Positions 61,200 to 63,895 of a DNA stretch of 64,000 nucleotides are shown here, piece by piece. The notes beneath the pieces are model-generated. The model was not told the origin of the DNA and ran no database searches. It saw only the letters and a list, made by a program, of their open reading frames with translations. Position 1 is the first letter of the stretch. Every line of letters begins with the position of its first letter. Source of the DNA: an uncultured Chloroflexus sp. Its GTDB lineage: Bacteria; Chloroflexota; Chloroflexia; Chloroflexales; Chloroflexaceae. Location of the stretch: assembly GCF_937951745.1 (NCBI RefSeq), contig NZ_CALFBQ010000007.1:62001-126000 (forward strand), given 5' to 3'. The translations under genes and the position numbers were made by a program.

Positions 61200-61255
61200 T
61201 ATACATCATTTTGTTATCAGCGAGTTTGGAAATAAGAGTTACATTGTGCTTCACA

Positions 61256-62437
61256 ATGCCAAGAAATAAACCAACCATCAGAAGCCTTTTCTACATCACC
61301 CATCTTCATAACCTCCCTTCTATTGTCGAACATGGCATCTTGTCCCATGCGCAAGTAGAGACGAAAAATCTCTCGCCAACCCCAATATATGATATGCACA
61401 TCGTTTCACGTCGCCGTGAACGGCGCGCTCCCGATGGACGAAGCTTGTAGGAATTCGCTAATCTCTACTTTCAACCGCGCAATCCGATGCTTTATCGCGT
61501 CGTTCGTGAAATGGGTAAGCGGAATGTAGTTGTGATTGGAGTAGATCCGAGCGTGATGGAGGTACCGGGTTGTTTTGTTTCTGATGGGAATGCCGCCCAT
61601 TCGTTATCAAGCATCCTGCCGATAGCTGAAGGATTACAGCGTATCGCTTCGTTAAGGAACATCTTAGATAATGAGTGGTGGAATGTTGCTGATGGTTCAA
61701 AACGTCAGATAATGGCTGAATGTTTAGTTCCAGATCGCATCCCGCCGTCGTATCTGCAAACTATTTACACCTCAGACCAAGAAGTTGCTGAAAGCGTTCG
61801 TAAGCTTCTGGGCGTTTTTTCAGGTAACGTTGTACCTGAACCAAAAATGTTTTTCCAACCAAACTATGCAAAACGCCTTACCGATACAATCAGTTTGGTT
61901 GATGGTGACATGTTCTTCTCGCACCAACAAACGCTGACGATCAGCGTCAATACCGTTTGTGTGATGGGAAAAGGGTTGGCATCGCGGGCCAAATATCAAT
62001 TTCCTGACGTCTACGTGGTCTATCAAGCTGCTTGTAGGAAGAAGCAGTTACAGATAGGAAAGCCATATCTTTATCGGCGTGAAGCGTTGATTGAAGAAGA
62101 ACTAGCTGATGATCCAGTTTTACTAACTAATCCCAATGTAAATAAATGGTTTTTGCTCTTTGCCACCAAGCGCCATTGGCGGGAAAAATCAGACCTCAAA
62201 GGCATTGAGCGTGGTTTGCAATGGTTGCAAGAAAACTATGCGGCCGAAGGCATACAGTCATTGGCAATACCAGCACTCGGCTGTGGTTTAGGTGGTCTCT
62301 CGTGGCGGGAGGTTGGACCGCTTATGTGTCAATATCTTGCTCCTTTGTCGATCCCAGTCGCTATTTATTTGCCTCGTGAACAAGTGATTGCACCCGAGCT
62401 ACTGACACCAGAATTTCTGCTCGGTCAAGCATCTTAA
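61256..62437 (+). pseudogene. DarT-DarG (toxin-macrodomain) fusion split by an in-frame TAG
   Basis: Frame 61256-62437 would encode about 393 residues with one TAG, at 61448-61450 (codon 65). Before it: DarT NAD-binding start SLFYITHLHNLPSIVEHGILS, TPIYDMHIVSRRRERRAPDG. After it, in the same frame: EFANLYFQPRNPMLYRV and AECLVPDRIPPSYL, which includes the catalytic Glu region of the DNA ADP-ribosyltransferase. Then a DarG-type macrodomain (about 210-375: SLVDGDMFF, VNTVCVMGKGLASRAKYQFPDVY, PALGCGLGG). Toxin and antitoxin are thus one chain. The TAG most simply replaces a Trp or similar codon. The tract is AT-richer than its neighbours, which suggests horizontal transfer. Confidence 0.85.
61487..62437 (+). 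CDS. Downstream ORF: rear half of DarT plus DarG-like macrodomain (316 aa)
   Basis: The remaining open frame after the TAG has an ATG at 61487, 36 bp downstream, without a convincing ribosome-binding site. If translated it keeps the toxin's catalytic Glu region but not its NAD-binding N-terminus, plus the full macrodomain with the Lys in VMGKGLA that is important in DarG. Such a product could be an antitoxin remnant that removes ADP-ribose from DNA. Confidence 0.6.
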   Translation: MLYRVVREMGKRNVVVIGVDPSVMEVPGCFVSDGNAAHSLSSILPIAEGLQRIASLRNILDNEWWNVADGSKRQIMAECLVPDRIPPSYLQTIYTSDQEVAESVRKLLGVFSGNVVPEPKMFFQPNYAKRLTDTISLVDGDMFFSHQQTLTISVNTVCVMGKGLASRAKYQFPDVYVVYQAACRKKQLQIGKPYLYRREALIEEELADDPVLLTNPNVNKWFLLFATKRHWREKSDLKGIERGLQWLQENYAAEGIQSLAIPALGCGLGGLSWREVGPLMCQYLAPLSIPVAIYLPREQVIAPELLTPEFLLGQAS

Positions 62438-62569
62438 TAGGTACGATACTTTCTTCTGAACAATGGTTAACCGCTTGCCTCTTCCTCATTTTGTTCACTA
62501 GCACTTACCAGCGGAGACGGGTGTTACCAACACTACTCTGATCGTGCTTACAATCGCCCCTCCAACTCG

Positions 62570-62578
62570 TGGTATACT
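62570..62578 (+). promoter_or_regulatory. Extended -10 promoter of the split photolyase operon
   Basis: TGGTATACT, 31 bp before ATG 62610. Confidence 0.6.
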
Positions 62579-62609
62579 CGATAAAGAAGAGAAATATCGA
62601 AACAAAACA

Positions 62610-63425
62610 ATGCAGCTTCGGACCGATCTGACAACTCGTGCTGAGCAGGTGGCGTATCTCGCCGGCGCGCTCGATGGCTTGTACGCTGGCCCGGCGACGC
62701 CTGCGCCAATCCGGGGTGGGCGGCGGGCGGCGTTACGCCGGCTGCGCGCGTTCGATGCGCGCGGCTATGCCCGGACCCGGAATGATGTTGCGAAACGCGG
62801 CGTTTCCGCCCTCTCGCCATACATCCGTCACGGGGTGCTGACGCTAGCCGAAGTGCGCGATTCGATTCTGAGTCGGTTTGGACACACTCCTGATACAGAA
62901 AAGTTCGTGAATGAACTGGCATGGCGTGCATTTTGGCAGCTCGTCTACGCTCAGCTTGGTGATCGGATCCATCAGGACATTGAGCCGGCCAAACAGCGTG
63001 CGCGGGTTGCACGCCGACGGTTGCCACCAGAAGTGATCGAGGCAGCTACCGGTCTCGTGTGTATCGACGAGTCGTTGCATGAGTTGTACACCACCGGTTA
63101 TATGCACAACCATGCCCGCATGTGGGTGGCTGCCTACCTGCAACACTGGCTCGGCGTGGATTGGCGCGAAGGGGCTGACCTCTTCTACCGCCACCTGCTC
63201 GACGGCGATCCGGCCTCGAACAGCTTGTCGTGGCAGTGGGTCGGGAGCACCTTTAGCCATAAACCGTATATCTTCAATCGCCAAAATGTCGAACGGTTTA
63301 GCGGCGGCGAGTTTTGTGCGCGTTGCCCGTTAGCATCCGGCGGTTGCCCGTTCGACGATAGCTACGAGAATCTGGCTCTGCGCCTGTTTGGCGTGTCACT
63401 AGCGGAACTTGAGGGGCGGCGATGA
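62610..63425 (+). CDS. Photolyase/cryptochrome FAD-binding half with Fe-S-type cysteines (271 aa)
   Basis: Covers only the C-terminal FAD-binding domain: NELAWRAFWQLVY, TTGYMHNHARMWVAAYL, GVDWREGADLFYRHLLDGDPASNSLSWQW, VGSTFSHKPYIFNRQN. Four Cys at 151, 236, 239 and 246 (TGLVC, then CARC and CPF) have the arrangement of the [4Fe-4S] site in iron-sulphur bacterial cryptochromes/photolyases, where spacings of about 88, 3 and 13 are known; here 85, 3 and 7. The N-terminal photolyase domain is missing and appears as the next gene. ATG 62610 follows the promoter closely. Confidence 0.88.
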   Translation: MQLRTDLTTRAEQVAYLAGALDGLYAGPATPAPIRGGRRAALRRLRAFDARGYARTRNDVAKRGVSALSPYIRHGVLTLAEVRDSILSRFGHTPDTEKFVNELAWRAFWQLVYAQLGDRIHQDIEPAKQRARVARRRLPPEVIEAATGLVCIDESLHELYTTGYMHNHARMWVAAYLQHWLGVDWREGADLFYRHLLDGDPASNSLSWQWVGSTFSHKPYIFNRQNVERFSGGEFCARCPLASGGCPFDDSYENLALRLFGVSLAELEGRR

Positions 63426-63895
63426 ACGGCGCGGTCGTGTGGCTCCACGGTGATAGCCTCAGCCCAACCGATCCGGCGCTGCTGGCCAACCCGGTTGCAC
63501 CGGCGATCTTTGTGTTTGACGAGCCGTTCTTGGCAGCAGCCCAACTGAGCTTCAAGCGGCTTTTCTTTCTGTACGAATGCGCGCTGGAGGCGATCGCCGG
63601 GAGGACGGGTAGCATCCGGCGCGGAGTGGTGGTGGAGGAAGTACGGGCGTTTGCCGCCGAGCAGCAGGCGACGGCGGTACATGTGACAGCGAGCGTTGCG
63701 CCGCGCTTTCGCCAGTATGTGGCAGAGTTGCGTGCCAGCGGGTTGCAGGTAGTGGTGCATGAACTGCCGGCGTTTGTGACGTGGCGCGGCGAGCCACCGC
63801 GCCGGTTTAGCTCCTTCTGGCGGCGGGTCGCCGCTGAGGCGCTGCGCCCAACCGGAACTGGACCGGTCTTGCCTGCTGAGCACGATGTGGAGTAG
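63422..63895 (+). CDS. Photolyase N-terminal domain-like protein (157 aa)
   Basis: Resembles the alpha/beta domain of DNA photolyases: [18 protein letters not shown] (cf. WFRNDLRLxDNPAL), [29 protein letters not shown] and [22 protein letters not shown]. It starts inside the stop of the FAD-binding gene (ATGA), so the two are co-translated. Together they would equal one ordinary photolyase, but with the domain order reversed. The tail is Arg/Pro-rich. Confidence 0.75.

What the first reader, a model, noticed from the sequence alone, without database searches (positions are those of the whole stretch)
61256..62437. Single-chain DarT-DarG toxin-antitoxin interrupted by one amber codon
The same reading frame contains, in order, the DarT N-terminus, a TAG at codon 65, the rest of DarT with its catalytic Glu region, and a DarG-type macrodomain. 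Most known DarTG loci are two separate genes. Here a DNA-ADP-ribosylating toxin and the enzyme that reverses it would be one polypeptide, so the toxin would carry its own eraser. Codons on both sides of the TAG stay in frame and family-like, so decay is recent, or the TAG is read through, or it is an assembly error. Readthrough would give toxin; its absence gives only a macrodomain.
Basis: partly seen in the sequence, partly recalled or inferred. Interest (0 to 1): 0.88.

Follow-up and report, generated by a model that had tools for sequence, protein, structure and literature searches.

The report
Disabled single-chain DarT-DarG toxin-antitoxin gene
This Chloroflexus gene is a copy of an already known one-piece toxin-antitoxin protein (a DNA-tagging enzyme joined to the domain that removes the tag), and a single stop codon near its start has most likely switched it off recently, so it is ordinary gene loss, not a new mechanism.

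Summary
The + frame 61256-62437 reads DarT (Pfam PF14487), then a DarG-type macrodomain, with one TAG at 61448-61450 (codon 65). Both domains are real and in one frame.

The fusion itself is not new. A full-length match (E 3e-137) is a solved structure, PDB 7OMU: one 406-residue chain holding both domains, matching a Thermosipho gene fetched here. Nineteen intact single-frame homologues were checked, in Chloroflexota and in contigs labelled Acidobacteria, Sumerlaeota, Thermosipho and cyanobacteria. Two close relatives carry the intact gene at the same chromosomal place.

All 19 have the same sense residue where this gene has TAG, in the active-site region. No tRNA reading TAG was found among 48. 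Protein change is low on both sides of the stop. The best reading is a recent nonsense inactivation of the toxin half, possibly followed by early decay of the antitoxin half: a macrodomain glycine invariant in intact copies is changed here and in an independently broken copy. A sequencing or assembly error cannot be excluded without reads. Regulated readthrough has no support.

The fusions lack DarG's toxin-sequestering C-terminal domain, so neutralisation would rest on the attached hydrolase.

The parts
61256..62437 (+). darTG fusion frame, 393 codons plus stop, interrupted by one TAG; probable pseudogene
61256..61447 (+). DarT N-terminal part (codons 1-64), including R53, which aligns with catalytic R51 of Thermus DarT
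   Evidence: Pfam DarT 8.1e-11; alignment to 7omv
61448..61450 (+). in-frame TAG; the same residue (Trp) is invariant at this column in all intact relatives; aligns with active-site H65 of Thermus DarT
61451..61867 (+). rest of the DarT domain with Y71, M78 and catalytic Glu E155 (MAECLVP)
   Evidence: Pfam DarT 1.2e-27; E155 aligns with the Glu changed to Ala in 7OMU
61889..62386 (+). DarG-type macrodomain (residues 212-377) with catalytic Lys K305 (= K80 of T. aquaticus DarG); G235 replaced by Cys
   Evidence: NCBIfam NF048014 2.7e-43; alignment to 5m31
61487..62437 (+). longest open frame after the TAG (316 aa); would need internal initiation; lacks the first part of the NAD+ site

Best explanation
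The locus is a single-chain DarTG gene that has recently been inactivated by a nonsense mutation. In intact relatives one polypeptide carries an N-terminal DarT ADP-ribosyltransferase that tags bases in single-stranded DNA using NAD+, and a C-terminal DarG-type macrodomain that removes the tag. Here translation from ATG 61256 stops after 64 codons, giving a fragment without the catalytic Glu. Any product started downstream lacks the region of catalytic Arg R53. So no active toxin is expected, and the attached macrodomain is no longer needed and may be starting to decay. Shown: the domains, their single frame, the stop, intact fused relatives including two at the same chromosomal site, and past purifying selection. 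Inferred: that the TAG is real in the organism, that it abolishes the toxin, that the change is recent, and the biochemical activity of the intact fusions.
For: DarT profile unbroken across the TAG and DarG macrodomain in the same frame. Full-length match to the single chain of PDB 7OMU, E 3e-137. Intact fusions in several phyla and in 10 other of 400 Chloroflexota genomes. All 19 intact fused copies checked have Trp at codon 65. Closest relatives L002 and L003 have the intact gene between the same flanking genes, collinear over about 9 kb. Nonsynonymous change is low (dN 0.10-0.26) against near-saturated synonymous sites on both sides of the stop. Outside the stop only one column invariant in the 12 aligned relatives is changed, G235C. 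No CUA-anticodon tRNA among 48. An independently broken copy in the same family (L073: frameshift plus two stops) shows that loss recurs, and it also lost this glycine.
Against: No reads or second strain were available, so an assembly error cannot be excluded. Apart from the stop and G235C the frame looks intact, so decay rests mainly on one base. One hit at an invariant column is not exceptional: L003 and L004 have one each and are intact.
Confidence: 0.82

Rival explanations
1. Sequencing or assembly error, or a minority allele in a mixed sample: the living organism has an intact fusion.
For: A single-base difference in an otherwise family-like frame; the assembly is a 94-contig draft; all relatives have a sense codon there.
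Against: Single-base substitution errors are uncommon in a finished consensus (general knowledge); a second change at an invariant macrodomain position (G235C) fits real relaxation, weakly.
Confidence: 0.11
2. The gene now works as an antitoxin-only allele: internal initiation (for example at ATG 61487) makes a truncated, toxin-dead protein whose macrodomain still removes ADP-ribose from DNA, protecting against other DarT enzymes.
For: A 316-aa open frame persists after the TAG; macrodomain residues N232, K239 and K305 are retained.
Against: By eye, no Shine-Dalgarno-like sequence precedes ATG 61487; the glycine G235 in the substrate loop, invariant in all intact copies, is changed; no other DarT is in the genome to protect against.
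Confidence: 0.04
3. The TAG is read through at low level or on a signal, making toxin production conditional.
For: The frame after the TAG is preserved and conserved.
Against: No amber-reading tRNA found; no relative shares the stop; a toxin fused to its own antitoxin gives no obvious need for such control (inference).
Confidence: 0.03

Closest known systems
Single-chain DarT-macrodomain protein of PDB 7OMU (same sequence, over the aligned part, as a Thermosipho gene, L010, but for the mutated Glu)
   Same: Same two domains in the same order in one chain, aligned end to end (query 6-389, E 3e-137)
   Different: The crystallised gene is uninterrupted (catalytic Glu mutated to Ala in the construct); the window gene has a TAG at codon 65 and G235C
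Two-gene DarTG (DarTG2: DarT plus macrodomain DarG), e.g. Thermus aquaticus, Mycobacterium tuberculosis, EPEC (PMC5179494, PMC7003065)
   Same: DarT with aligned R51, Y71, M78 and E160 equivalents; macrodomain with the K80 equivalent
   Different: Fused in one frame; DarG's C-terminal DarT-binding domain is missing (profile match only 1-152/338)
DarTG1 (guanine-specific DarT1 with NADAR antitoxin; PMC11543638)
   Same: DarT sequence similarity (8baq)
   Different: The antitoxin half is a macrodomain, not NADAR

Membership tests
DarT (DNA ADP-ribosyltransferase, PF14487) | full-length DarT profile match above curated cut-off | tested here: met
   153.6 bits vs cut-off 22.5, profile 1-201/201, read across the TAG
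DarT (DNA ADP-ribosyltransferase, PF14487) | catalytic residues equivalent to Thermus R51, Y71, M78, E160 | tested here: met
   R53, Y71, M78, E155 by alignment; residue roles from PMC9967889
DarT (DNA ADP-ribosyltransferase, PF14487) | uninterrupted coding frame | tested here: not met
   TAG at codon 65
DarT (DNA ADP-ribosyltransferase, PF14487) | passes the NCBIfam toxin_DarT equivalog cut-off | tested here: not met
   95.8 bits vs cut-off 150; a diverged subfamily
DarT (DNA ADP-ribosyltransferase, PF14487) | ADP-ribosylates ssDNA and is toxic unless antitoxin is present | not testable with these tools
   needs biochemistry
DarG antitoxin | DarG-type macrodomain with catalytic Lys (K80 in T. 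aquaticus) | tested here: met
   NF048014 2.7e-43; K305 aligned with K80 of 5m31
DarG antitoxin | C-terminal DarT-binding domain | tested here: not met
   match ends at profile position 152 of 338; 148.5 bits vs equivalog cut-off 250
single-chain DarT-macrodomain family (7OMU type) | both domains in one frame, aligned end to end with the family | tested here: met
single-chain DarT-macrodomain family (7OMU type) | open frame across the DarT domain | tested here: not met
   unique TAG; 19 of 19 intact relatives have Trp

The most novel reading that the evidence does not exclude
The amber codon is a regulatory stop in a single-chain toxin-antitoxin: rare readthrough makes a self-erasing toxin, while internal initiation makes a toxin-dead macrodomain protein from the same gene.
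Probability: 0.03. Interest if true: 0.7.

Novelty: new member of a known kind. Interest (0 to 1): 0.15.

Why it matters
Such dead copies give natural examples of how a one-gene toxin-antitoxin can be lost: the toxin half must fail first, or together with the antitoxin half. The absence of DarG's sequestering domain in the fusions raises a testable question about how a fused toxin is restrained.

Tried and rejected
(1) Amber suppression: all 48 predicted tRNAs were typed; none has anticodon CUA. (2) A stop at the same codon conserved in relatives: none in 19 intact fusions. (3) A guanine-type specificity, suggested by the near-invariant GNAA motif resembling DarT1's Asn104 region: rejected as an inference, because a 'DNA ADP-ribosyl transferase' (7yk3), probably the M. 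tuberculosis DarT, has the same GNAA motif. (4) Dating the TAG from dS: synonymous sites are near saturation even to the nearest relatives, so only 'recent relative to that divergence' can be said. (5) Promoter- and terminator-like sites near the gene are at shuffle level. (8) The main paper on DarT structure (Nature 2021, 10.1038/s41586-021-03825-4) is not held; that it reports 7OMU is from my own knowledge. (9) A plasmid search with the Thermosipho fusion found only distant two-gene systems.

Full report
Observation. The frame 61256-62437 (+) holds 393 codons and one internal TAG at codon 65, 61448-61450. Read with X at the stop, it matches Pfam DarT over its whole length (7.5e-45) and a macrodomain (2.4e-6); the pieces before and after the stop match DarT independently. 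NCBIfam gives DarG 2.7e-43 (only profile positions 1-152 of 338) and DarT 2.7e-27; both scores are under the equivalog cut-offs. PADLOC gives DarT and DarG. The genome has no other DarT.

The fusion is a known kind. phmmer against solved structures gives 7OMU, one 406-residue chain aligned with residues 6-389 (E 3e-137). The conserved MAECLVP reads MAACLVP in the crystallised chain, so the catalytic Glu was mutated. Over the aligned part that chain is otherwise the sequence of the Thermosipho gene L010. A genome scan returned ten full-length single-frame homologues and one cut off by its contig end, from contigs labelled Chloroflexota, Acidobacteria, Sumerlaeota, Thermosipho and Cyanobacteria; the labels are those of metagenome bins and were not checked. 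Five of 8 Chloroflexus genomes have the gene, counting this one. Among 400 Chloroflexota genomes, 11 have a strong end-to-end match in one frame (E below 1e-170), and this genome's is the only one of the 11 with a stop. A viral contig also encodes a full-length relative at 58% identity; its frame was not inspected residue by residue. The held papers that I searched describe two-gene operons only; one review says DarG is found strictly in a two-component operon (PMC7050489). The fusions are therefore under-described, but they are not new.

Two-gene relatives exist too. In L075 and L076 DarT and DarG lie in the same frame with a stop at the junction, and in G248 and G214 the two are separate adjacent genes. 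An in-frame stop at the junction is a plausible starting point for fusion (inference).

Orthologues at the same site. L002 is collinear with the window over 9 kb: the same upstream gene, the fusion gene, then the split photolyase-like pair; L003 likewise. Both have an intact fusion.

The stop. Every intact relative inspected has Trp at the TAG column: 12 by multiple alignment, and 19 in the wider set that includes them. The column aligns with H65 of Thermus DarT, listed among its active-site residues. The other key residues are kept: R53 (Thermus R51), Y71, M78 and E155 (Thermus E160) in DarT, and N232, K239 and K305 (T. aquaticus DarG K80) in the macrodomain. A 64-residue product has no catalytic Glu; a product begun at ATG 61487 has no R53. 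Neither should be an active toxin (inference from PMC9967889 and PMC5179494).

Selection. dN to L002 and L003 is 0.10-0.26 against pS 0.66-0.87 on both sides of the stop, so the protein was conserved for most of its history. Outside the stop, the window copy differs at one column invariant in the 12 others: G235C in the NTVGVMGKG loop. Intact copies of similar branch length have 0-1 such hits, so this is only weak evidence of decay. The independently broken copy L073 has Asp at the same glycine, which fits relaxed constraint on the antitoxin once the toxin is dead; the comparison was made after the fact.

Readthrough. The 48 tRNAs of the genome (99.4% complete) include no CUA anticodon. Nothing else points to recoding.

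Likely function of intact members (inference). DarT tags ssDNA bases; DarG's macrodomain reverses this and is sufficient as an antitoxin in T. aquaticus (PMC5179494). In two-gene systems DarG also binds DarT through its C-terminal domain (PMC7003065). The fusions have no such domain, so restraint would rely on the attached hydrolase.

Composition and history. The gene is 46% G+C between flanking genes of 59-61%. Its synonymous divergence from L002 (pS 0.74) greatly exceeds that of the flanking genes (0.16-0.41). This suggests that the gene has been exchanged at this site between lineages, or diversifies unusually fast.

Verdict. A genuine member of a known single-chain DarTG family, most likely inactivated recently by a nonsense mutation. 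Interest is low.

Noticed in passing
window 62544-63425 and 63422-63895 (+): A photolyase-like enzyme seems split and in reversed domain order: the FAD-binding domain (PF03441, 3.6e-25) is encoded first, and a weak photolyase N-terminal domain match (PF00875, 1.6e-4, under cut-off) follows in an overlapping frame. Both frames are conserved in L002 and L003.
   Followed up: partly
window 61256-62437 compared with L002 and L003: Synonymous divergence of the DarTG gene (pS 0.74) is far above that of its neighbours (0.16-0.41 vs L002), although the gene order is the same: possible allele replacement at a fixed site.
   Followed up: partly
L073/L091 (genome G194, same family): A second broken single-chain DarTG: frameshift in the DarT half, two stops in the macrodomain, and G-to-D at the same glycine that is Cys in the window.
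   Followed up: partly
L005:722-1252: A second, diverged DarT-like segment (33% identity, Leu at the R53 position) lies just upstream of the intact fusion in an Acidobacteria-labelled MAG contig.
   Followed up: no
window 61241-61259: Inverted repeat ACATTGTG-CTT-CACAATGC overlaps the presumed start codon at 61256; not seen in the upstream regions of L002 or L003, and such sites occur at chance level.
   Followed up: partly
L092:1-1173: A full-length relative of the fused DarTG (58% identity) is encoded at the end of a contig listed as viral (IMG/VR).
   Followed up: no
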